Shown: one piece after another, positions 18,079-30,082 of the stretch | Numbering within the stretch: the first letter of the stretch is position 1 | How the letters are laid out: each line of letters starts with the position of its first letter | DNA from: Dichelobacter nodosus | GTDB taxonomy: Bacteria; Pseudomonadota; Gammaproteobacteria; Cardiobacteriales; Cardiobacteriaceae | Direction of reading: 5' to 3' | Length of the DNA stretch: 35,482 bases | Assembly (NCBI RefSeq): GCF_001263335.1 | Contig: NZ_LGVW01000005.1 | Coordinates: 1 to 35,482 of the forward strand | Translations under genes and position numbers: made by a program | Notes under the pieces: generated by a model | What the model saw: only the letters and a program-made list of their open reading frames with translations | Database searches by the model: none | Told to the model about the DNA's origin: nothing

Positions 18079-18306
18079 TTACACGGGAATACCCGTCCAA
18101 GCAACCGCCGGCGCTTGTCCGATGATGCGCTTCGTATAATCATCATAATAAACATGCTGACCGACTTGCGTCGTGCCGGTGATAACAACAATTAACCCCG
18201 CCGGCGTTTCTGCAACCCACGCATCAGCGCCTTTTTGCGCGATAACTCGCGCTGCTTGTTGTTTTTTCGGCGCAATTAAATCATTGAACTGCTTTAAAAT
18301 ATCCAC
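18079..18306 (-). CDS. Small protein at the end of the late operon
   Basis: A 75-residue product with a GTG start and AGGTG upstream: MDILKQFNDLIAPKKQQAAR..., AETPAGLIVVITGTTQVG, VYYDDYTKRIIGQAP. The second half looks like a small beta-rich domain. It lies eight bases after the tail-tip gene and is the last late gene. The function is unknown, possibly a tail or assembly accessory. Confidence 0.65.
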   Translation of the reverse strand: MDILKQFNDLIAPKKQQAARVIAQKGADAWVAETPAGLIVVITGTTQVGQHVYYDDYTKRIIGQAPAVAWTGIPV

Positions 18307-18314
18307 GGAAACAC

Positions 18315-19991
18315 CTAAAAATCGAGATAACGGTCAACATCTAAAGTTTGCGTCACCACCGGCGCGTCATTTTCAAGAGAAACGGTAAGCGTAACGCTTT
18401 TTACCACGCCTTGAAATTGCTCGCCGTTTTCATTGAATGCCCACACATCGCCAAGTTCGGCGCGCGGCAATTGATATTTATCGGCAACCGGCAAGGTCAC
18501 CGTTTCGGTTTTATGAATACCGGTTTCGGATAAAGCATGAATGCCGGCGGCACGCGCGACCGCCTCTTCAGTATATAACACATGATTTAAAACCGCGGCT
18601 TCCGGAATTTGATTACTGGCTTCACGATAGACTAAAAAACCGCGCGCACTGATGCCGCTGCCGACAACGCGCACGGCATTGGCGCGTACTTTAATCGTTC
18701 TGCGACCGCTGATGCTGTAAATTAATGAAGCAGGAACGGTATGTTTGGGCGGCACATTTTCCCATGCCGCCTTTTGCCAAATCGGTTTGACGCTTAATTC
18801 CTGTAAATACGGGTGACTGCTGACAAAAGCGCCGGCGGCTGATGCAATATCGGCAATAACAGCAATCGGCGTTTGCCCGTTAACCGCATAGTGATTGCCT
18901 TGAATTAACCAATCAACGCATTCCCACGCCGCAATTGCATAAGGTAATAAATACAATTGTTCATCGGCGATTTGTCGCGCATAACGCGCTTCTTGATAAA
19001 TCATGTGTTTGCCGGCGGCATAATCGGCGCCGAGTCTCGCAGTAATACTGCGCCCTGTAATCGTATATGAATTGCCGATAAAGCGGCGATTATCGCTGTA
19101 ATCTTCAGCAATCACATCAAAGCGTTCACGATTGATAAAAATAGACACCACCGCTTCATCGCCTTTTTTGCGCCCATCAATATTCAAACGGGCAAAATCA
19201 TCGGCGCTGATATCAAAACTGGCTTGCCAACAAAACGCGCTGATATCCGTTTGCAGGCGCAGCGATAATAAATGCAGCGGTTCATTTTCAAAAGTAGCGT
19301 TAATTGTGTTATGAATCATATAAGTTTTAAGGTCAGGAATAATGAACGGGAACAGCGGTTTATCCCAGCAGGCAAACGGCAGCGGTAAAACGTCGGTGTC
19401 ACTGATGAGCGGTTGTTGCCAAAAATGCAGCGGCAATTGTGATGCCGGCGGCAGCAGGCGACAAAAATCGCGCGCTTCTTCCGGCGGCGGTGGTGGCGGC
19501 AGTGGTACGGGGAAAAACAAACAAGGCGGACGCACGGCTTTTTGATAACGTACACCGCGGCAATTTTTGAGCGAATAACCGGCAAATTCTGATGCACTGC
19601 AATTGCGCAAAAATATCATCGTGCTGCTGCGCGCGGCAATGCAGTTTTTAAATGCTGCCGGCGGCAGTATCGGCGTAGCAATACAATTTTTTAATGAGAT
19701 GCCGTCAGGGAATGCAGCGGTAAAACAGTTTTTCAGCGACGGGAAAAACGCGAATAAAACCGGCTGGCATCGTTTAACCGGTGCGGCTAATTGCGTTTTA
19801 TCGCTGGCGCAGGACGCGATGCGTAAAAATGGCGTGACTTGATAAGAATAACAGCGCGCAATCGTGACGGGTGAATGATGTCGCACCGGCGCGCAATGTA
19901 CCGCCGGCGCTGGTTTTGCATGATGCGTTGCGCAGTGTTTTACGTTGACCGCGCCGCTGTTTCGCGCACTAAAGCAACTGCTGATTATCAT
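18315..19991 (-). CDS. Tail-tip protein with N-terminal 14-residue Cys repeats
   Basis: A 558-residue protein in three parts. Residues 6-157 hold twelve Cys at spacings of 14,13,14,14,14,14,14,14,14,13,13, several in the phrase LKNC or FKNC. A proline-rich spacer (about 160-200, PVPLPPPPPPEE) follows. Residues about 225-558 form a tail-hub-like domain: NEPLHLLSLRLQTDISAFCW, VSIFINRERFDVIAEDYSD, ITGRSITARLGADYA. This last part resembles the hub or tail-tip proteins of Mu-like siphophages, so it probably sits at the tail end near the host surface. Its ATG overlaps the upstream stop (ATGA), so I keep the repeats as part of the gene. Confidence 0.75.
   Translation of the reverse strand: MIISSCFSARNSGAVNVKHCATHHAKPAPAVHCAPVRHHSPVTIARCYSYQVTPFLRIASCASDKTQLAAPVKRCQPVLFAFFPSLKNCFTAAFPDGISLKNCIATPILPPAAFKNCIAARSSTMIFLRNCSASEFAGYSLKNCRGVRYQKAVRPPCLFFPVPLPPPPPPEEARDFCRLLPPASQLPLHFWQQPLISDTDVLPLPFACWDKPLFPFIIPDLKTYMIHNTINATFENEPLHLLSLRLQTDISAFCWQASFDISADDFARLNIDGRKKGDEAVVSIFINRERFDVIAEDYSDNRRFIGNSYTITGRSITARLGADYAAGKHMIYQEARYARQIADEQLYLLPYAIAAWECVDWLIQGNHYAVNGQTPIAVIADIASAAGAFVSSHPYLQELSVKPIWQKAAWENVPPKHTVPASLIYSISGRRTIKVRANAVRVVGSGISARGFLVYREASNQIPEAAVLNHVLYTEEAVARAAGIHALSETGIHKTETVTLPVADKYQLPRAELGDVWAFNENGEQFQGVVKSVTLTVSLENDAPVVTQTLDVDRYLDF
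19521..19976 (-). repeat. Region encoding eleven 13-14-residue repeats ending in Cys
   Basis: Each unit ends [KR]-x-C or close to it, for example SLKNC, AFKNC, FLRNC, PVKRC. Between the Cys the residues vary, with a hydrophobic centre. The DNA is not an obvious simple repeat, so the units have diverged while period and Cys were kept. A solenoid with a ladder of Cys, disulphide-linked or metal-binding, would fit. Confidence 0.75.
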
Positions 19992-20323
19992 ACTTGTTCA
20001 TCGTATGCTTTTAAAAAATCGTATTGCTCGCGTAAAGTAATGTTGTTTACCGGCGTTATGTAATCCCAAACTGGCGGACGCAAGCTTGAGCGTTTGAAAC
20101 GGTCGCGCGCAAAGAGCGTATAACATTTATCAGCCGGCAAACAAGTAAAACAATAATGCCCGTTTTGGTTTGAGTACGTTTGCGCGACAATCTGCAGCGT
20201 TTTGCTGTCTAACAAAAAAACAGGTTGCACAGCCGGCATATGCGCAACAGTCACAATACCGCCGAGCGTGCCGCCGATGAACCCAGTGTCGTGCGGAATA
20301 TAATGTTTATCCGATAAAATCAT
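19988..20323 (-). CDS. Tail protein with carboxypeptidase-regulatory-like (Ig-like) fold
   Basis: A 111-residue product from MILSDKHYIPHDTGFIGGTL. Its second half carries the pattern of small Ig-like or CarboxypepD_reg domains: PVFLLDSKTLQIVAQTYSN, then NGHYCFTCLPADKCYTLFAR. These decorate phage tail tips. I start at ATG 20323, two bases after the upstream stop, although its ribosome site is weak. In-frame ATGs at 20353 and 20413 would overlap the upstream gene by 29-89 bases. Its stop overlaps the start of the repeat-bearing tail-tip gene. Function is inferred from neighbours. Confidence 0.65.
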   Translation of the reverse strand: MILSDKHYIPHDTGFIGGTLGGIVTVAHMPAVQPVFLLDSKTLQIVAQTYSNQNGHYCFTCLPADKCYTLFARDRFKRSSLRPPVWDYITPVNNITLREQYDFLKAYDEQV

Positions 20324-20324
20324 G

Positions 20325-21191
20325 TTAGTAATACCAAAAATCAGTACGTACATAAAGCTGTTCGTGACATCGCTCTCTGCCGGAACTTGCGTGCACAATG
20401 AATTGCGCGTCATCGTGTTTTACGGTGTCATAACTGTTTGCTGCATGCGTATTTGACGATAAATAAACGCCGGCGATTAAATAAACGCTTTCGCTATCAG
20501 CAACATAAAGCGGTGCGAGATGCGTTTCTACGGTCTCTAAACCAGCGCCCAGCGCACACGAAGCATAAACGTTGCGCACAACAAAATTATTGTTTTGGTC
20601 AACGCGCGCTAAACAGCCGGCAATATGCGTACTCGTATCAAAAGTGGGCGGACGTATACCGTAAATATCTGAATCAGACCAGCTGCCGCCGGTGTGGTGT
20701 AAATAAACGGCGCGCTCGCCTTTTGCATTTTTGCTGCTGTCGCCGCAGACGCAAAAGCTGCCTTTGTTGATGGCGTCGGTATAACCGCAAACCGCAAAAA
20801 AAACAAAACCACGGCTGCTGCCAACCAATAACCACTCGCCCGTGCGGTTTTTATTTGAATATTTATAAGGTGTTTGCGGCGCGCACATGATGCGCCCGTC
20901 ATTAATCCCCGTCATGTCAAGATAAATTTGTAATCTGGCTGAGGCGCCGTTGTCATCGCTGGCGCGTAAAAACCACTGCGGTTCTAAACCGCGCGGTTTT
21001 GGGCAGAATACTTTCACGTGCTCATCTTCAAAAGCAAGTGAAAACCCAAGCGGTTTTTGCTTGCCGTAACCAGTGACTAAACAGGCTTTTAAAATCGTTA
21101 AAAGCGAATCGGGATTACCATTCAGCGGCGGTGCATCTTCATCATCAAAACGATAAACGTTCACCGGTTCTGTTCGATAGTATTGATTCAT
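20325..21191 (-). CDS. Tail-tip associated structural protein
   Basis: A 288-residue product from MNQYYRTEPVNVYRFDDEDA. Near the start, LLTILKACLVTGYGKQKPLGFSLAFED matches by memory a conserved opening of tail-region proteins in Mu-like siphophages. The rest is beta-rich with several Cys and Gly (GSFCVCGDSSKN). I start at ATG 21191, two bases after the large tail gene's stop and seven from GGAG. A start at 21365 would lie inside that gene. It is probably part of the tail tip; receptor binding is possible but not shown. Confidence 0.7.
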   Translation of the reverse strand: MNQYYRTEPVNVYRFDDEDAPPLNGNPDSLLTILKACLVTGYGKQKPLGFSLAFEDEHVKVFCPKPRGLEPQWFLRASDDNGASARLQIYLDMTGINDGRIMCAPQTPYKYSNKNRTGEWLLVGSSRGFVFFAVCGYTDAINKGSFCVCGDSSKNAKGERAVYLHHTGGSWSDSDIYGIRPPTFDTSTHIAGCLARVDQNNNFVVRNVYASCALGAGLETVETHLAPLYVADSESVYLIAGVYLSSNTHAANSYDTVKHDDAQFIVHASSGRERCHEQLYVRTDFWYY

Positions 21192-21192
21192 C

Positions 21193-24100
21193 TTAAAGCT
21201 CCGTGGTGTTGCCACGCAGGCAAATCGTAAAGCCATCGCTGGCGCTTTGTTTTTCAGATGACGGTTGCACTGCGCGCAAAATCCAGACGCCGATGTGCGT
21301 GCCAAACGTATTAAAGCGGACGGTTTCGCCGGCAGCCCAACCGGAAACGCCGCTTCGGATACCAAAGGCGCCGAGCGGTAACGTGAAATACGGTTTATTG
21401 GTGGCAGGATTAATCGGTGCTAAATCCGTTAACGTGTCATAACGACCGACGAAACCGAGTGCCTCACTGTATAAATCAAATTGCATGGCATCGCGCCAAA
21501 CAATCGCCCAGCGGTCAGTTGTTGTGCCGTCGTCTGTTAAAACAAAGGGGAAATCCGTAACGTTTAATCGGCTTCTGATATCATCGCCGCGGCGTTCATC
21601 TGACCAAATATTATCAAATGCTTTTTGCCCGAATGGCGCCGTCACGCGCACTTGCAAATCGCCGCCGATGAGCGCGGAAGAAACAAAGGTGCTGTTTGCA
21701 GGATAAGCGCGGCGCAGCGGAAATTGCAGCGTTAACGTGCCATCAATATCCACGCTGATAATACGGTTTTCTTCTTCTTGCCCATGTTTGACTTTGAGCG
21801 GCATTTGATAAGCTGATAAATCAAGCGGTTCCGACCACGTCAGCGTGCCCGCGGTTAAGTCATAATCATACAAATGAGCATCAACGGATTTGCCGGCGTT
21901 ATCGAAAACACAAAGCCCGTCTAAATCACCGCGCGATAATGACACAACGCCTTTTGCCGTATGCGCGCTGCCGATATCTTCAATAATACGGTTACCGATA
22001 ACAATCATATCGCCGCGGCGGAAAATCGGCACGCGTCCGTCTTGCGGCAAACGCACCGCATCAATGCCGATTACAGCAGTATCAAGCGGTAAATACGTAT
22101 ACGCCACGGCGTTATAAGTAATGGTTTCGGCGAGCACGTGCGCCGGTTTAAATATTTTGCCATCAACAACGGCTTCTGCCTGATACCACGGTTCATTTTC
22201 ATTGCCGGCGGCATTGACTAATTCACCGAATTTAACCGCGGCGACACCGCTTTCAACGTCAACCGTGCCGGTAATTTTATTATCATTGATGCTGCCGTCG
22301 AGTTGTGCAATGGCGCTTAATTGTTCGCCGGTTGCGGTGGTCGCGCGGATTTGCAAACTGCCGGCGCGAATGGGCGAAGATGGGGTGCGGAAAGTAGCGG
22401 CATCAACCGGATTACTGTCAATTGTCGTTGAAAGCGCAACGATGCGCGCGTTGATATCGGTAAATTCTGATAAACGAATCACGCCGTTTTGGTAATCAAT
22501 GGTGCCGACTTTGCGCGCATAGCCGGTTGAAGTATCTAAATCGGTATACATCGCGCCGGCGCGGTCAAAATGAAATTTATTGCCGACTTTAAGATGAACG
22601 CTGCCGGTGACGATGCGTTCTGCTAAATTGGGCGCGAGTTCAATTTCTAAAAAGCGCTCAGTATTGATTTCTTCAAACGTATTGGTGACGGTTTTGGGCG
22701 TAAACCACACTTCAACCACGCCATCATCGCCGAATGGCATAAAAGCGCCAACGCTTTGATACTCAAAACCGGTGAAGAAATTACGAAACACATCGCGCAC
22801 TTCATGCTTATCTGGATCGCTTTGCGATTTGCGAACGATTTCAGTACCCGATTTATAAGTCATATATTGCGCTTTGGGAATTTTAACGGTGGTCTCCGGT
22901 TTAAAAGTGAGTTTGCGCGCGTCGTAATCAATCGTACCGAATGGCACATTATTTTCATCGATGAGTACGCCGGCGCCGTTATCGCGCAATACTTTATACG
23001 GGTCAATGCGTTTTAAATAAATTTCGCCGTATGTTTGCTGTTGAAAATCTTCAATCAATAAATTGTATTTCAGGCGCACAGTATTGGGTGCTATTGGTTT
23101 ATCGCCTAAGTCGAGCACAATTTCGCCGGCGCCATTGCGTAGCGGCGCTTTATGCTCTTGCTGCACTTTATCCGCCTCTTCGAATTTTGAATAAGTGAGC
23201 GTGACTTTTTGCCCCAGCATATAACTTGCGCTATCGAGTTTTATCGTTTTTGTGCGCGCGTCATAATAACCTGTTGCGTTACCGGTGATTTTGCCGGCGG
23301 CGTCACAACTTGCTTGATATGTGTTCCACGTCAATTTCAGCGTTGCCGGATCTGCGGTTTGATTTAATACCAGCACGATGCTTACTTTCGGCGTTTCGCT
23401 GCTTCTGTTTTTATACTGCGCCGGCGTGCACCAAGCAAATAAAATAGATGAACCAACGTCGGGCAATTCGCCGCAGGTCAGCGTAACAGTACCGCTAGCA
23501 TAATTTAACGCGCCGCTGCCGTGTGCCGCGCTAAAGCCGCGCAACGCGCCAGAACCGTCATCATATAAATCATACCAACGCCCTTGCGCGCGATATGAAA
23601 CCAGTAAACTCGCCGGCGCTGGAATCGGATTAATCGCTAACACATAGTTATAACTACGGTTATTAATACTGATATCAATTTTGGTGGTATCAGATACTTT
23701 CAACTCGGAAACCGCAGGACGAAATGAAACCGTGCTGATGCCGGACGTATAAACCGAAAACCGAATTTCACCGCGCGCATAATCAACGGTGCCAATGGAT
23801 TCTTGGCTTGATGCGTTGACTAATGTGCCGCCAACATCATTTGCAGTGATATTGCCTTTAATCGTCAAAGAATCCGGCACAATGGCGCGCCCTAAATGAA
23901 TAACCTCATCGATATTTAAGGTTCGCAGGCGCAAGGTTTGCGTGATAAATCCATCGTCGCCTTTAATCGCATTATCCACTAATACTTGCCGTTGCCCTGC
24001 CGCGGTTAAGTCAACTAATGACGTTTCAACTTGCGACGTCGGCACTAGTTTTTCCATCAACGACGGCACGCGGATTTTCATCGCGCCGGAAACTGCATCA

Positions 24101-24822
24101 GCGCTCAATGCTTTAACGCCGTAATACTGCGCTGAATCGGCGACGTGGGTTTCGCGGATTTTGCACGGTGCATCGCCGTAGCCGAGCACGGGATAATCAA
24201 TGCCGAGCATGTCTTGCTCAAGCGCTGTTGATGTTTCCATTTTTACCACAGTGCGCACAAAATCTTTACCGGTCGGGTCGGTGAAGGTGCGGTCTTCGCT
24301 GGATACTTTAATCACTTGAATATATTGTTCATATTGCGCATAACCTTTTTTGTCCTGCCGCAAACAATAAACATCGCCAATCAGCGGCAACGGCTCACCT
24401 TGGCGTTGATAAGCTTGTATAACGCGGCTGCCGCGTGATTGTACGGATAATAAAGTCATACGGGATTCAATAGTGCCAACTGAATAAGCTTCAATTCTTG
24501 GGACAATATCGCGGCGCTCTTCGCCATATTTAATGCCGCGAAACAATAAATAACTGACGTTTTGCGTTTTCGGCGGCTCGCTTAAAATCACATAAGCACC
24601 GCCCAGCGGCGTATCATCAGGGCGTCGCACGGCAGCGTGCACAGAACGCGCATGAAAAGCGCCCATGGTTCTCGCGACGTCCGAAATGGGATTAAAAAGC
24701 TGATTTTCTTCATCGGTAAGCGCGGTTTTCGTCATCAAACCGCCGCCGTCGTCAGCATCGGTTAAGCGTTCGGTTAAATAAATTTGCAAATCTTGACGCG
24801 TCAGCGCGGTTTTTCGTTCCAT
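21193..24822 (-). CDS. Very large tail protein with repeated beta modules
   Basis: A 1209-residue product beginning MERKTALTRQDLQIYLTERL. The N-terminal 300 residues include NPISDVARTMGAFHARSVHA and ILSEPPKTQNVSYLLFRG, which I associate with the conserved large tail protein of Mu-like siphophages. The remainder has recurring beta phrases, each a GT[IV]DYxxGxIxF pattern: near residues 347 (GTVDYARGEIRF), 440 (GALNYASGTVTL), 631 (GTIDYDARKLTF), 776 (GTIDYQNGVIRL) and 988. They suggest a string of similar beta-sandwich modules. I use the ATG at 24822 with GAGG upstream; one four codons earlier overlaps the previous stop. It probably forms the tail tip or fibre base. Confidence 0.75.
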   Translation of the reverse strand: MERKTALTRQDLQIYLTERLTDADDGGGLMTKTALTDEENQLFNPISDVARTMGAFHARSVHAAVRRPDDTPLGGAYVILSEPPKTQNVSYLLFRGIKYGEERRDIVPRIEAYSVGTIESRMTLLSVQSRGSRVIQAYQRQGEPLPLIGDVYCLRQDKKGYAQYEQYIQVIKVSSEDRTFTDPTGKDFVRTVVKMETSTALEQDMLGIDYPVLGYGDAPCKIRETHVADSAQYYGVKALSADAVSGAMKIRVPSLMEKLVPTSQVETSLVDLTAAGQRQVLVDNAIKGDDGFITQTLRLRTLNIDEVIHLGRAIVPDSLTIKGNITANDVGGTLVNASSQESIGTVDYARGEIRFSVYTSGISTVSFRPAVSELKVSDTTKIDISINNRSYNYVLAINPIPAPASLLVSYRAQGRWYDLYDDGSGALRGFSAAHGSGALNYASGTVTLTCGELPDVGSSILFAWCTPAQYKNRSSETPKVSIVLVLNQTADPATLKLTWNTYQASCDAAGKITGNATGYYDARTKTIKLDSASYMLGQKVTLTYSKFEEADKVQQEHKAPLRNGAGEIVLDLGDKPIAPNTVRLKYNLLIEDFQQQTYGEIYLKRIDPYKVLRDNGAGVLIDENNVPFGTIDYDARKLTFKPETTVKIPKAQYMTYKSGTEIVRKSQSDPDKHEVRDVFRNFFTGFEYQSVGAFMPFGDDGVVEVWFTPKTVTNTFEEINTERFLEIELAPNLAERIVTGSVHLKVGNKFHFDRAGAMYTDLDTSTGYARKVGTIDYQNGVIRLSEFTDINARIVALSTTIDSNPVDAATFRTPSSPIRAGSLQIRATTATGEQLSAIAQLDGSINDNKITGTVDVESGVAAVKFGELVNAAGNENEPWYQAEAVVDGKIFKPAHVLAETITYNAVAYTYLPLDTAVIGIDAVRLPQDGRVPIFRRGDMIVIGNRIIEDIGSAHTAKGVVSLSRGDLDGLCVFDNAGKSVDAHLYDYDLTAGTLTWSEPLDLSAYQMPLKVKHGQEEENRIISVDIDGTLTLQFPLRRAYPANSTFVSSALIGGDLQVRVTAPFGQKAFDNIWSDERRGDDIRSRLNVTDFPFVLTDDGTTTDRWAIVWRDAMQFDLYSEALGFVGRYDTLTDLAPINPATNKPYFTLPLGAFGIRSGVSGWAAGETVRFNTFGTHIGVWILRAVQPSSEKQSASDGFTICLRGNTTEL

Positions 24823-24830
24823 ATCGTGCC

Positions 24831-25235
24831 TCAAATGGTCATAAGATTAATTTTGATGGTGTAAAAATCGCCGTCTTCTTCTGGTGTGCGGTAGACGACG
24901 GGCGTTGCCTCAAAAGCGTTTTCATGCAAGCGAAAGGTGACGTTAAAAACGCGTCCATCGTAATGCGTCAGCATCATTTCCAGCTCCGGCGTCGTCGTCC
25001 AATCCTGCATTGTTTGCAGTTGCGCGCGCCGAATCCATACCCAGTCGCCGGCGAGCGTAATCGGGCGTCCGCTGTATTTAGTGCCTTGTTGAATTACTTG
25101 CGCGCCGGATAATGTGCGCACGGGATTAGATTGCGCGATGTTTGACCAGTCAAATTCATCTATCCAGCGCATGTCTTGGTCAAACTGTAACCATGCCTGC
25201 GTGTCTTTACGGGTGAGTTGCCAGTAATCATTCAT
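24831..25235 (-). CDS. Minor tail protein downstream of the tape measure
   Basis: A 134-residue product, MNDYWQLTRKDTQAWLQFDQ..., with RTLSGAQVIQQGTKYSGRPI and a beta-rich end YTIKINLMTI. Size, position and the ITLAGDWVWIRRAQL segment suit a small distal tail component that joins the tape measure end to the tip. It overlaps the tape measure stop by four bases and its stop overlaps the next gene. Confidence 0.72.
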   Translation of the reverse strand: MNDYWQLTRKDTQAWLQFDQDMRWIDEFDWSNIAQSNPVRTLSGAQVIQQGTKYSGRPITLAGDWVWIRRAQLQTMQDWTTTPELEMMLTHYDGRVFNVTFRLHENAFEATPVVYRTPEEDGDFYTIKINLMTI

Positions 25236-28200
25236 AATGGTCTTCTTTTAGCTGCGTTATAAAGCTCTTTGGCGAATTCTTCTTTGCCGCGCTGCGCGCC
25301 GCGCTCTTCCGCGGCGGCGATTTTAGCGTTCCAAATATCGGCAAGCGCTTCAGCCGTGGGGGCAGAACCAACCAATGTTACCGCCGGTTTATTCATATCA
25401 ACTTGTGGCGTGCGCGCATCGTCAGCCATGCGATTATCCGGCGTACGATTTTGAGCGATGTGTTCGGCTTTATTTTGTTTACGTTGGGCATCGGCGGCTT
25501 GACGTTCAGCCGCTTTCTTTTGCGCTTCAGCAGCACGCACTTCAGCTTGGCGTTGTTCTTCGGCAAAAATCTGTTTTTGTAAAATCAAGGCACGCTCAAA
25601 TTCTTTAGCAGCTTCTTTATTGCCGGCTTTTTGTGCCGCAGCGCGCTTTGCTTCTAATTCTTTTAATTTTTTAGTTTCTTCAATTTGTTTGGCAAGCGAA
25701 TCATCACCGCGCAGTCGCGCCAAATCAGCTTCCAAACTGTCGGCAGTGTCGCGCGCTTCTTCGGATAACGCGCGCATGTGGTTGCGTGCTTCTTTGAGCG
25801 CATCGCGTAAATTATTTAAACGGCTATCACCCAAATTTTGCACGCTATCGACCGAATCCAAAGAGGAAATATGTAATTTGCCCATTGCTTCGGAAATATC
25901 TTGAGCACTAAAAGAACCGTTGCGTAGTGATTCCGTCATTTCATCGATTCGCGCCCGCGCCGAGGCTGCGGCTTTCATCGCGCTGACAAGGGACGTGGCA
26001 ACTTCGTTAACGTTGCTTACACCAAAATTAAAGCGCGTTTTTTGCCAAAAGCTTTGCAGAGCATTTTCAACTTCTTCACTGGTCGCTCCCAGTTCTCTCA
26101 TCGCTTCGATACGTTTGCGCGCTTCGGTGTAATAGGCTGGCGCGGCAAGGGTAATAGTTTTACGCGTTTTTTCGCTTTGAGATTCGACTTTTGCTTCAGC
26201 AGTGCTGGCTTCTTTAGCGGCGTTGGCGCTTTCTTTAAGCGCTTGTGTTTTTTGTTCGATAGCGGCTTTATTGGCGAGCACTTCGCTGGTATTGGCAGAT
26301 AGCGATTGCGTATGTGCCGCGTTAGCTTGCGCTGCTGCTTGTGCTGCGTTCGCGCCGCCGTTGATGCCAGCGCGCAGTTGAGCGAGTTGTTCGGCAGTAA
26401 GTGCGCCGGCGGTACCGGTTTCTTTAAGCGCATCGGAAAACGCTTTGAAATCTTCGGTGGTATGCAAGCTTTTAAGCATATTGTCAAAAGCCAGTCGCAC
26501 GGCTTCAGCGCTTTGTTTGCCCGATGCTTTCAATGCTTCCATACCGGTTTTCCAGTGCGCCAACATTTTTTGCACGCCGGAAGAGGTACGATTGGCGATA
26601 TCGTCCATATTTAAACCCAAAGCTTGCAGTGCTGCGCTTTGTTCATCGGCTGCGCGTTTAGCGAGCTCTTGCGCTTGTGCGGTTTGAAGCACGGCGTGAT
26701 AAAGCTCCTGATTGCCGTCAACCGCTGACATCAATTTTTGGTTTAACTGCTCCTGCGCGGCGCTACTGTCGCCCATGTTTTGACGTGCCGCTTCATAAGC
26801 ACGCGCTAATTGCGCCACGTTGCCCTCAGCAATCACTGCCACCGTTCCGAATGCTTCTAATGATTGCTTGGCTTTATCGCTGATGCCGGTTTCGAATTCG
26901 GAAAAACTTAAGCCCAAAGTTTTAAATGCTTCATTAGCCGCTTCGAAATCCGTCTTCATCACTAAACCGATGGATTTCCCTTCAATTTCTGATGTTAACT
27001 CGATGATTTTTTGTCTGGCGACGTCAATTTGCGAGGAGATATAGGCATAAGTTGCGCCGTTTGCCTCGCCGGCATCGCGCAGCACTTGAAGCGAGGATTG
27101 ATGCTGCTCAATTTGTGCGTTTAATTGATTAATTTGCGCTTGATTCTGCGCAACCATTTCAGCGTGTTGCCGTTCAGCTTCGGCGGCTTCTGCGGCTTTT
27201 TGCGCCAATTGTTCTTTGGCTTGGGCGAGGCGTTGTGTTTCTTCGGTGGCAACTTGCGCGCTGGTTTTATAATAGGTGGCGACATCTTCAAATGTGCTGT
27301 CGCTAAAGATAGCTACAGTGTAAGCCGCAAGTTTGCCCAGACTATCACCGAATGCACGTACGTGTTCTGATTGCTCATAAAGCCAACTACCGAATGAAAA
27401 GCCAGTTGTGAAGCCAGCCGTTGCAGCAGAAAGTACGTTTAGCGTTTTGCTTAAAGCGTTTGCTGCTTTATCCATTTTGCTAAACCCTTCAACGCCTTGT
27501 TCTGTTTCGCCGCGTAAACGGTGCAATCCAGCGCTTGCTTGTTCGCTCCCTGCCCCTAATAATGAAAAACTGTTTTGTGCGACGCCGCCTAATAATTTAA
27601 AACTTTCTGCAGCGGCATAAGCCACGACCTTTATTCCGGCAACCGCAGAGACGAGTTCCGTAATATGCGGGTGTGCCTGTGCAAGCGCCAAAATCTCTTT
27701 GACGGTACCGCCAAAAGCAGATGCTACGTCGGCGATGATGGGTAATAATAGGCTGCCCAGCTCGATGGCAATGTTGTTAATGGCAGTTTTTGCTTGTTCG
27801 ATTTTTTTCGCTGCGGTATCCATTGCCGCGTTTGTTTCTTCTTGCATGGCGCCTGCGGTTGCTTGCTGGTCTGCAACCAATGAGAGTGCGTGGCGAAAGC
27901 TGTCTAAGCTGCCGGCGGCTAAAGCAATATCATCGGCATATTCCAAACCGAATAATTTAGTAAGCGTGATGGCGCGCTGCTGCTTATCAAGCTGACTTAA
28001 TTTTTCCATAAACGACATTAACGCTTGTTCGGGATTGGCGCGAATCGATTGCGCCAGTGCATCAGCTTCTAAGCCGATGCTTTTGAGCGCATCTTTAAAT
28101 TCTTTACCGGCAGCCGGCGCTGTTTGTAGTTTGTTCAACAAAGCATTGATGGCAGTACCAGCAACTTCCGGTGTTTTGCCTAAGGCGATAAAACTATCGG

Positions 28201-29203
28201 CAAGCGCGGCGGCAGATTCGGCAGCGAGCCCGAATTGTTTGGCAGTGCCGCCAATGCGCAAAGTGGCATTAATGATTTCGGCTTCGGTGGCAGCGGTATT
28301 ATTGCCGAGGGTATTAATGGCATCTCCGAGCGCGCGCACATTTTCCAGCGGTATTTGATAAACGTTTGCTAATTTGGCGGCGGCGTCTCCGGCTTGCTCC
28401 GCCGTCATATTAAACGCGACTGCCATTTCGCCGGCGAGACGGGTAAATTCTGGCAAGTCTTGAAACGCCACGCCTAATTGTCCGCCCATCGCCGTAATAT
28501 TAGCTGTCTCTTCGGCAGTCATGCCGAGCTCGTAGGCAAGTTGACGAATGGTGCCGGATAACTGCTGCATTTGTTCGGGCGTAGCATCAACTACTTTTTT
28601 AACGCCTGCCATCGCTGTTTCAAAGCTCATCGCGGATTGCGCGACCACGGAAAGTCCGCCGGCGCTGCTGATAATTTTGGCAAGTCCGCCGGCGATATCG
28701 CCCAAACTGGGTTTGGTATTACGCAGCGCGCTTTCCAGTTCATCGATTTTTTGCCGGTGCGCGTCAGCAGCGTGCGCTAATTCTTTTTGTGCCGTGCCGC
28801 CTTCCTTTTTTAAATCACGGTAGGCATCAACAGCTTGTTCAATTTTACTAACGGCGCGTTCGTCGGTATCGATACCGAGCTGCGTTTTTGTTTTGGCGAT
28901 GGCTTGTAACTGTTGCGCTTTTTCGCTTACGTGCTCAAAGCTGTGCGCCATTTCATCACTTTGCAACACGGCGCCGGCGGTTTGTTTGCCCAAGCCATCA
29001 ATAGCGCTTTCTAATGCGGTGATTTGTTGGGCATGTTGTTCTGGCGTGAGTTTTTCCCATTCGCTGCGCAGTTTTTCGGTTTGGTTTTGTAGCGCTGCAG
29101 TTTGCTGCGCTACGCCGGTTAACGTTTCTGATATTGCTTCGATTTTTTCAAAATTGCGAACGCTGGCATCAATTTTAATGCCAACTTTTAAATCATTTGC
29201 CAT
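25232..29203 (-). CDS. Tape measure protein
   Basis: A 1323-residue helical protein that sets tail length and helps DNA entry. The N-terminus is coiled coil (about 20-170). A phage-tail tape-measure core follows at about residues 185-420, with FETAMAGVKKVVDATPEQMQ, LAYELGMTAEETANITAMGG and IGGTAKQFGLAAESAAALAD. Hydrophobic stretches appear near 470-530 (LGSLLLPIIADVASAF, KVVAYAAAESF). A long Ala/Glu/Gln-rich coil runs to the end, with dense charged repeats near 1190-1270. By the common rule of about 0.15 nm per residue, the tail would be near 200 nm. A weak GGGA precedes the ATG, and a hairpin lies just upstream. Confidence 0.92.
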   Translation of the reverse strand: MANDLKVGIKIDASVRNFEKIEAISETLTGVAQQTAALQNQTEKLRSEWEKLTPEQHAQQITALESAIDGLGKQTAGAVLQSDEMAHSFEHVSEKAQQLQAIAKTKTQLGIDTDERAVSKIEQAVDAYRDLKKEGGTAQKELAHAADAHRQKIDELESALRNTKPSLGDIAGGLAKIISSAGGLSVVAQSAMSFETAMAGVKKVVDATPEQMQQLSGTIRQLAYELGMTAEETANITAMGGQLGVAFQDLPEFTRLAGEMAVAFNMTAEQAGDAAAKLANVYQIPLENVRALGDAINTLGNNTAATEAEIINATLRIGGTAKQFGLAAESAAALADSFIALGKTPEVAGTAINALLNKLQTAPAAGKEFKDALKSIGLEADALAQSIRANPEQALMSFMEKLSQLDKQQRAITLTKLFGLEYADDIALAAGSLDSFRHALSLVADQQATAGAMQEETNAAMDTAAKKIEQAKTAINNIAIELGSLLLPIIADVASAFGGTVKEILALAQAHPHITELVSAVAGIKVVAYAAAESFKLLGGVAQNSFSLLGAGSEQASAGLHRLRGETEQGVEGFSKMDKAANALSKTLNVLSAATAGFTTGFSFGSWLYEQSEHVRAFGDSLGKLAAYTVAIFSDSTFEDVATYYKTSAQVATEETQRLAQAKEQLAQKAAEAAEAERQHAEMVAQNQAQINQLNAQIEQHQSSLQVLRDAGEANGATYAYISSQIDVARQKIIELTSEIEGKSIGLVMKTDFEAANEAFKTLGLSFSEFETGISDKAKQSLEAFGTVAVIAEGNVAQLARAYEAARQNMGDSSAAQEQLNQKLMSAVDGNQELYHAVLQTAQAQELAKRAADEQSAALQALGLNMDDIANRTSSGVQKMLAHWKTGMEALKASGKQSAEAVRLAFDNMLKSLHTTEDFKAFSDALKETGTAGALTAEQLAQLRAGINGGANAAQAAAQANAAHTQSLSANTSEVLANKAAIEQKTQALKESANAAKEASTAEAKVESQSEKTRKTITLAAPAYYTEARKRIEAMRELGATSEEVENALQSFWQKTRFNFGVSNVNEVATSLVSAMKAAASARARIDEMTESLRNGSFSAQDISEAMGKLHISSLDSVDSVQNLGDSRLNNLRDALKEARNHMRALSEEARDTADSLEADLARLRGDDSLAKQIEETKKLKELEAKRAAAQKAGNKEAAKEFERALILQKQIFAEEQRQAEVRAAEAQKKAAERQAADAQRKQNKAEHIAQNRTPDNRMADDARTPQVDMNKPAVTLVGSAPTAEALADIWNAKIAAAEERGAQRGKEEFAKELYNAAKRRPL

Positions 29204-29215
29204 TGTGTTTTCCCT

Positions 29216-29240
29216 GATAAAAACACCGCCCAGCGGCGGT
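29216..29240 (-). terminator. Terminator-like hairpin between methylase and tape measure
   Basis: On the minus strand, ACCGCC-GCTG-GGCGGT (29240-29225) is followed by a short T-run (29223-29219) before the tape measure ATG at 29203. It overlaps the methylase stop codon. Confidence 0.55.
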
Positions 29241-30082
29241 TATGAGAATTTATAAGTCAAATTGTCTTCATAAACAGAAGAGTAATTGAGCCGTGTTTGG
29301 ATATTGATGCGTTGATAATCACTCATGCGGTTGCAGCCTTCGGCGTCGCTCGTGGTCACAAAATTAAGATAATCAAGCCATTCACTTTTGGCGCCGCTAA
29401 ACATGATCCAAGGTGGACGAATGAAACCGGTTAAACGCAAAAATTGAACTAATCCGAAATAAGAGTCCATTTTGTAGCTGCTTTGGTCAGTGCAAATATA
29501 AGGTGGGTCGAGTACAAATAAACAGTTGGGGACGTGGTAAAAGCGCGGTAATAAGTCCGTATAGCATTCATGAGTTATTTCCAAGCCTGCCAAATAATTT
29601 TCTGCCAGCGGATAATCATTTTTCCGGATATTTTGGTAGAACGTTTTTTGATAAAGCGCCGGCAAACTTTGCGCGTTATTGCCAGAAAATAACAACCAAC
29701 TTGAAATACAATTGATATCTTTATAGCCGTTAAACGTTTCTAATATCTGCACGACGGCTTCTTTGACGGGTGCTTTGATTTTCTTTTCGCGCGGTTGATT
29801 TTGTAAAACGTCAAAAAGCATGCGGCGCAAGCGATTCGTGTCTTCAATATGCTGCAAGCGTTCAACATAGCCATCAAAATCGTTATAAATAACGCGCGCT
29901 TTGGGGCAGGTGCGTTTTGCAGTATGCGAAAGTAAACCCGAGCCGCCGAATGCATCGATGATTGTCCAACCGGCGCCGTCGCTCGGGATATGTTCTTTGA
30001 GTACTTTTTGAAATGCGTTTAAAAACATGCGTTTTTGCCCAATGAAAGGCAAAGGTGCTTGTTTAAAAGGTTTATTGTTCAT
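29240..30082 (-). CDS. Dam-like (D12 class) N6-adenine DNA methyltransferase
   Basis: The 280-residue product has alpha-class order: motif X PLPFIGQKRMF (residues 10-20), AdoMet motif I IIDAFGGSGLL (41-51), and catalytic motif IV LDPPY near 192-195. It resembles D12-class adenine methylases, although GATC specificity cannot be read from sequence. A strong AGGAGG precedes the ATG. It stands among tail genes, in the slot before the tape measure where many siphophages encode tail assembly chaperones, and ends in a terminator-like hairpin. It may be a separately acquired cargo gene. Confidence 0.85.
   Translation of the reverse strand: MNNKPFKQAPLPFIGQKRMFLNAFQKVLKEHIPSDGAGWTIIDAFGGSGLLSHTAKRTCPKARVIYNDFDGYVERLQHIEDTNRLRRMLFDVLQNQPREKKIKAPVKEAVVQILETFNGYKDINCISSWLLFSGNNAQSLPALYQKTFYQNIRKNDYPLAENYLAGLEITHECYTDLLPRFYHVPNCLFVLDPPYICTDQSSYKMDSYFGLVQFLRLTGFIRPPWIMFSGAKSEWLDYLNFVTTSDAEGCNRMSDYQRINIQTRLNYSSVYEDNLTYKFS

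What the first reader, a model, noticed from the sequence alone, without database searches (positions are those of the whole stretch)
19521..19976. Twelve cysteines in a 14-residue ladder at the head of a tail-tip protein
Cys recur at 14,13,14,14,14,14,14,14,14,13,13 residue spacing, mostly after basic or Asn residues. So regular a series is not chance and is unusual for phage tails. It could be a solenoid with stacked Cys, a metal-binding rod or a disulphide-linked spike.
Basis: seen in the sequence. Interest (0 to 1): 0.68.

Follow-up and report, generated by a model that had tools for sequence, protein, structure and literature searches.

The report
Eleven-tier cysteine-ladder phage tail hub
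The tail-hub protein of a siphophage of the sheep foot-rot bacterium begins with a real and undescribed 14-residue repeat of about eleven tiers that is shared by distant phages, and in one clade of phages every tier carries a cysteine that selection has kept while almost everything around it changed.

Summary
The ladder is real. ORF 18315-19991(-) has Cys at residues 6,20,33,47,61,75,89,103,117,131,144,157; 0 of 200,000 shuffles reach the same run. The window matches, ORF by ORF, the published inducible siphophage DinoHI of Dichelobacter nodosus. Residues ~225-558 are a Mu gp44/T4 gp27-type baseplate hub (pLDDT >90, Z about 22); the ladder is its N-terminal extension. In Cardiobacterium phages the extension is only 19-24% identical outside Cys, yet all 12 Cys and the exact spacing are kept without an indel. 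Cys-free relatives (Pseudomonas, Acidovorax, Shewanella, many others) have the same 14-residue period with W/F/H + Q + A + L/V, and about 11 tiers wherever they can be counted. So it is a fixed-length repeat domain of a hub family; Cys was put on position 9 (usually Gly/Ala) in one clade of Cardiobacteriaceae and Neisseria-type phages. A homologue (Shewanella MuM16-1 p48) was found in virions by mass spectrometry. Most likely it is a trimeric, surface-variable stalk below the hub with three Cys per tier. Fold, trimer and redox or metal state are inferred; AlphaFold2 gives no confident structure there. No Pfam, NCBIfam, PDB-sequence or literature description was found.

The parts
18315..19991 (-). 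baseplate-hub gene, 558 aa; same length and place as DinoHI ORF 809707-811383 ('chp')
   Evidence: PHROG 6079 'tail protein' E 1.2e-61 over residues 207-555; DinoHI Table 1 of PMC2593044
19521..19976 (-). Cys ladder: Cys 6 to Cys 157, eleven 14-residue tiers plus a terminal Cys
   Evidence: conservation
19326..19520 (-). Pro-rich linker and the LPLxF...LPLxFxCW strand pair (residues 158-222) between ladder and hub
   Evidence: counterpart '..LLF...LVF.C' pair in other lineages
18318..19319 (-). Mu gp44/T4 gp27-type hub domain, residues 225-558
   Evidence: AlphaFold2 pLDDT mostly >90; VIA-align Z 22.5 (Milano), 21.2 (Mu)
19988..20413 (-). upstream small gene, 141 aa, overlapping the hub start
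   Evidence: DinoHI 809285-809710
18079..18306 (-). 75-aa gene directly after the hub; a gene of about 75 aa follows the hub in most of the phages fetched
20325..21191 (-). tail assembly-type gene upstream (part of the 20325-21365 ORF)
   Evidence: PHROG 9600; DinoHI 808507-809373
21193..24834 (-). about 1210-aa tail protein, PHROG 6128
25232..29203 (-). tape measure protein, 1323 aa
   Evidence: PF10145 E 7.5e-36

Best explanation
The ladder is the lineage-specific form of a fixed-length repeat domain (about 11 tiers of 14 residues) that forms the N-terminal extension of a Mu gp44-like baseplate hub. Shown: the repeat, its register, its length constancy, its single clade of Cys bearers, selection on Cys, and the presence of a homologue in virions. 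Inferred: because hubs of this fold are trimers and the N-terminus points to the distal side, three extensions run together as a slender stalk or spike below the hub, each 14-residue tier being strand-turn-strand-turn (hydrophobic positions 0 and 6, Pro/Gly/small residue at 3-5, small residue at 8-9). Position 9, often Gly/Ala, became Cys at every tier in this clade, giving a stack of Cys trios. They would be reduced during cytoplasmic assembly and could cross-link into disulphides once the virion is outside or in the periplasm, stiffening the stalk while its outer surface diverges fast.
For: Ladder real. Same 12 Cys and spacing in Cardiobacterium phages at 19-24% non-Cys identity with no indel. 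Among four C. hominis-type phages 23-47 of 152 ladder codons differ non-synonymously per pair, 0 of 12 at Cys, while the 338 hub codons have 17-32 such changes. Lag-14 autocorrelation z 13-21 for aromatics, Q and hydrophobics in 51 N-termini without the Cys clade (related sequences, so z is inflated). With Cys masked and end tiers left out, Cys-type and WQxA-type 14-mers align best at shift 0 (score -6.9, next best -12.8; 0 of 2000 column permutations as good). Tier number: 11 by profile walk in eight WQxA-type proteins with 20 allowed; signal stops after about 10 tiers back from the anchor in three lineages. All ladder bearers fall in one clade, support 100/99. Hub fold. [quoted passage not shown] MuM16-1 p48 is in virions by MS (PMC8541194). 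DinoHI makes particles, tail 203 nm, base plate 13 x 15 nm (PMC2593044).
Against: AlphaFold2 gives the ladder pLDDT 25-45 and the WQxA form only a low-confidence long helix, so no fold is shown; only monomers could be predicted. Partial-ladder relatives put W, Y, H, R, E, D or P at position 9, so a buried Cys trio is not obligatory. DinoHI lacks the N-terminal flank its relatives have. The distal position rests on analogy with JBD30, a remote relative. The agreement of the Cys type with the HQDA-type repeat alone is not significant (P 0.39).
Confidence: 0.5

Rival explanations
1. The extension is a flexible or extended strand with periodic short motifs that docks along another repeated or symmetric tail component; Cys is a sticky or tolerated anchor residue in this clade.
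For: Very low AlphaFold2 confidence; composition changes widely (Ala/Gln/Arg-rich, Ser/Thr/Tyr-rich, Pro-rich) and net charge of the 152-residue ladder runs from +16 to -18 at fixed length.
Against: No indels over 152 residues at 19% identity and a constant tier number are unusual for disorder; no partner identified.
Confidence: 0.25
2. Each chain folds on its own as a beta-solenoid with 14 residues per coil and stacked Cys at one corner.
For: Constant coil length, two hydrophobic positions and two turn-like positions per unit; stacked identical residues are typical of solenoids (general knowledge).
Against: AlphaFold2 usually finds solenoids (general experience) and did not here; bulky and charged residues replace Cys in relatives.
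Confidence: 0.13
3. The Cys ladder is a metal rod: Cys trios of a trimer, or neighbouring tiers, bind Zn, Fe or Cu at each level.
For: Tail tips do use metals: JBD30 upper baseplate protein has a four-Cys putative metal site, and iron-sulphur clusters are reported for lambda gpL and the RcGTA hub (PMC11445458).
Against: No CxxC motif; nearest Cys are 13 residues apart; individual sites are lost freely in relatives.
Confidence: 0.06
4. Alpha-helical coiled coil with a 14-residue (two-heptad) period.
For: WQxA-type units have hydrophobics at 0, 3 (Ala), 6 and 10, and AlphaFold2 draws a helix for them at low confidence.
Against: 9-12% Pro in the ladders of DinoHI and Cardiobacterium phages and a strand-like make-up in the Shewanella/Vibrio forms; WQxA units carry Pro or Gly at position 5 in 43% of cases.
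Confidence: 0.06

Closest known systems
Phage Mu gp44 / T4 gp27-type baseplate hub (9ki1, 1wru, 8fqc, 3d37)
   Same: Residues 226-556 superpose over about 300 residues, Z 20-22.5
   Different: The roughly 220-residue N-terminal extension with the ladder lies outside the aligned ranges, which start at about model residue 217-231
PHROG 6079 (tail protein)
   Same: Family match to residues 207-555, E 1.2e-61
   Different: The match starts after the ladder; PHROGs gives no note on the repeat
Triple beta-spiral shafts (fibre shafts, as defined in PMC3150272)
   Same: Period close to 15, Pro/Gly turn followed by a conserved aliphatic position, trimeric fibre as proposed here
   Different: Period is 14; only two of five required hydrophobic positions are met in all groups
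Iron-sulphur tail-tip proteins (lambda gpL, RcGTA hub) and the JBD30 upper baseplate metal site
   Same: Cys-bearing tail-tip proteins of siphophage-type tails
   Different: The JBD30 site is one metal held by four Cys; here 12 Cys are spread at 14-residue steps in an N-terminal repeat

Membership tests
Mu gp44 / T4 gp27-like baseplate hub | hub fold | tested here: met
   Z 22.5 to 8fqc_C1, 21.2 to 9ki1_G, model residues 226-556; Foldseek 3d37_A E 2.7e-19
Mu gp44 / T4 gp27-like baseplate hub | trimer at the centre of the baseplate | not testable with these tools
   monomer prediction only; homologue MuM16-1 p48 is in virions by MS (PMC8541194)
PHROG 6079 tail protein | profile match | tested here: met
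   E 1.2e-61, residues 207-555, profile 257-603 of 605
Triple beta-spiral | 15-residue repeat, hydrophobic at c, e, g, k, m and Pro/Gly at j | tested here: not met
   period 14; only e and k are hydrophobic in all groups, Pro/Gly near j, c only in the marine group, g and m fail; definition from PMC3150272
Alpha-helical coiled coil | heptad hydrophobics without frequent Pro | tested here: not met
   14 Pro in the first 157 residues, 7-12% Pro in close relatives
Beta-solenoid | regular coil stacking in a predicted or solved structure | tested here: inconclusive
   pLDDT 25-45 in residues 1-163, no coil pattern in the model
lambda gpL / RcGTA iron-sulphur tail-tip proteins | family profile match | tested here: not met
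   no Pfam family at E 0.1 for the window protein
Zinc ribbon / CxxC metal sites | CxxC pairs | tested here: not met
   smallest Cys spacing 13

The most novel reading that the evidence does not exclude
A new kind of fibrous trimer: an 11-tier, 14-residue-per-tier stalk of fixed length but freely evolving surface, built into the hub of many siphophages, in which one clade has turned every tier into a ring of three cysteines, making a redox-switched or metal-filled spike.
Probability: 0.15. Interest if true: 0.78.

Novelty: new variant of a known kind. Interest (0 to 1): 0.55.

Why it matters
It defines an unannotated, fixed-length repeat domain in the hub of a widespread group of siphophages (including phages of Pseudomonas aeruginosa, Acidovorax, Shewanella, Cardiobacterium and Neisseria) and gives a natural series from 0 to 12 cysteines in one scaffold, so that the role of the Cys (cross-link, metal or neither) can be tested directly. 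If the stalk model holds, it would show what stands at the tip in phages whose hub resembles that of Mu and that carry this extension.

Tried and rejected
DNA-level tandem repeat or uptake-sequence origin: no tandem array over the ladder, mixed TGC/TGT codons, no neisserial uptake sequence in the window. Note that two such sequences lie inside the ladder-coding part of the Neisseria-type phages and may account for part of their local similarity. Chance or Cys-rich make-up: rejected; the other ORFs sampled average 1.0% Cys, and the tape measure and tail tube proteins have none. First idea that Cys replaces the Trp of the W-type repeat: rejected, masked register analysis puts Cys at position 9 and Trp at position 0. 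Family searches: nothing in Pfam or NCBIfam, nothing credible among PDB sequences for the extension (ezrin at 0.012 I take for a weak compositional match). Papers on a 14-residue tail repeat: none relevant. An alignment of nine very diverse hubs was too divergent for the locus finder. While weighing the triple beta-spiral idea I began to recall fibre letters of an animal virus in my reasoning, stopped, and used only the published motif definition. The structural list covers only the hub domain, so it says nothing for or against a known fold of the ladder.

Full report
What was claimed and whether it is there. The Cys ladder lies on the minus strand in ORF 18315-19991 (558 aa). Cys occur at residues 6, 20, 33, 47, 61, 75, 89, 103, 117, 131, 144 and 157, i.e. 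spacing 14,13,14,14,14,14,14,14,14,13,13, with codons exactly between 19976 and 19521. Shuffling the first 175 residues 200,000 times never gave a run of more than five 13/14 gaps. Codons around the Cys differ and no DNA tandem repeat is found there, so the constraint is on the protein.

What the gene is. The window is the provirus IMGVR_UViG_2654587739_000001 in a 1.45-Mb genome whose nearest relatives with this gene are Cardiobacteriaceae. Its ORF lengths and order match Table 1 of the paper on DinoHI, an inducible siphophage of Dichelobacter nodosus (PMC2593044): hub 809707-811383 (1677 bp), the 426-bp and 228-bp neighbours and the 3972-bp tape measure gene. That paper lists the hub gene as 'chp' and does not mention cysteine; it shows particles with a 203-nm tail and a 'claw-like base plate' of 13 x 15 nm. 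The gene therefore belongs to a phage type known to make particles, and its short N-terminus is the published start. Residues 207-555 match PHROG 6079 'tail protein', and residues 225-558 are predicted with pLDDT mostly above 90 as a Mu gp44/T4 gp27-type hub, Z 22.5 to the Milano hub and 21.2 to Mu gp44. The ladder (residues 1-163) has pLDDT 25-45.

The Cys are under selection. Three hubs from related genomes (Cardiobacterium valvarum, C. hominis and an uncultured Cardiobacteriaceae) carry the same region. Against C. valvarum the 152-residue ladder is 19% identical outside Cys, yet 12 of 12 Cys match, with no indel; the uncultured one keeps 10 of 12. Among four C. hominis-type phages each pair differs non-synonymously at 23-47 of 152 ladder codons and at none of the 12 Cys codons, against 17-32 of 338 codons in the hub. 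So this is a fast-changing sequence on a rigid frame.

The repeat is older than the Cys. Viral-contig scans gave many further hubs. Their N-terminal extensions have no Cys ladder but the same period: with the Cys clade left out, lag-14 autocorrelation has z 13.4 (aromatics plus Cys), 21.4 (Gln) and 14.5 (hydrophobics) over 51 N-termini; the sequences are related, so these z values are inflated. The clearest member, L136, reads LRSHWQESAPVATA-LRSHWQDSDSISVG-HIARWQLARPLHTM and so on. A profile walk that could have gone to 20 tiers stopped at 11 in eight WQxA-type proteins, and a lineage-independent score falls to background after about ten tiers back from the last one in three lineages. The HQDA-type group is recognised by the profile walk for only about seven tiers, and the Shewanella/Vibrio forms are clear for about seven to eight, so the number 11 is firm for the WQxA and Cys types and probable for the others. 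Aligning the 14-mers with Cys masked and the end tiers left out puts Cys and WQxA types in one register (shift 0; 0 of 2000 column permutations as good): position 0 W/F or other hydrophobic, 3 Ala/Gly, 4-5 Pro, 6 Leu/Ile/Val, 8-9 small, and Cys at position 9, where HQDA-type repeats have Gly or Ala in 69% of units. The match of the Cys type to the HQDA type alone was not significant (P 0.39), though HQDA and WQxA types agree strongly with each other.

One clade, graded occupancy. In a hub-domain tree all ladder bearers lie in one clade with support 100/99 (bootstrap not fully settled). Occupancy runs 12 (DinoHI, C. valvarum, C. hominis types), 10 (uncultured Cardiobacteriaceae and Neisseria-type L029), 8, 6-7 and 4; lost positions hold T, W, A, Q, E, G, R, Y, D, P or H. 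L029 is called Neisseria-type because its 29.9-kb record holds 26 neisserial uptake sequences and no control matches. Net charge of the ladder region ranges from +16 to -18 at the same 152-residue length.

It is in virions. Mass spectrometry of Shewanella phage MuM16-1 virions identified p48 (PMC8541194), which is the homologue fetched and carries W-type repeats.

How it most likely works. Shown: a repeat domain of near-constant length, its register, selection on Cys, and a virion-borne relative. [quoted passage not shown] Fixed tier number, absence of indels and free surface change suit a stalk better than a disordered tether. In this clade each tier then carries three Cys. The bulky or charged replacements in relatives suggest that position 9 is at least partly exposed, which favours optional cross-linking over an obligatory buried or metal site. 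Disulphide formation outside the reducing cytoplasm is the mechanism I would bet on first, but it is untested.

What it is not. It fails the published definition of a triple beta-spiral (period 14, only two of five hydrophobic positions in all groups), it is too Pro-rich for a coiled coil in this clade, it has no CxxC motif, and it has no Pfam or NCBIfam family. A monomeric beta-solenoid is not excluded.

Verdict. The right frame is broader: a fixed-length 14-residue repeat domain of a siphophage hub family, with a clade-specific Cys series under strong purifying selection. The hub is of a known kind; the repeat domain appears undescribed in the sources searched.

Noticed in passing
window 1-35482: ORF lengths and order match the published D. 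nodosus siphophage DinoHI (CP000513 788865-827603, PMC2593044), so the window is a DinoHI-type prophage.
   Followed up: yes
window 29240-30082: A 280-aa D12-class adenine methylase ORF lies between the tail-tube and tape-measure genes, where the DinoHI table lists only a 210-bp ORF; the spacing implies an insertion/deletion of about 630 bp.
   Followed up: partly
window 6827-6951: Perfect 21-bp x2.6 and 12-bp x3.0 tandem repeats inside the O-like replication gene (6351-7238), as expected of lambda-type origin iterons.
   Followed up: no
L029 4785-4794 and 5020-5029: Two neisserial DNA-uptake sequences lie inside the N-terminal coding part of the Neisseria-type hub gene; the record holds 26 in 29.9 kb.
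   Followed up: partly
window 19326-19520 and N-termini of L006-L010, L012, L014: Paired 'LxF ... LxFG' or 'LPLxF' motifs flank the repeat domain on both sides in relatives; DinoHI keeps only the C-terminal pair because its protein starts at the first tier.
   Followed up: partly
L094 (879-aa hub), L012, L002: A second repeat of roughly 23-28 residues ('xLxGxLPxLxxxA') of variable number precedes the 14-residue domain in many relatives, unlike the fixed 14-residue domain.
   Followed up: no
window 18079-18306: A gene of about 75 aa directly follows the hub gene in most phages of this group; function unknown.
   Followed up: no
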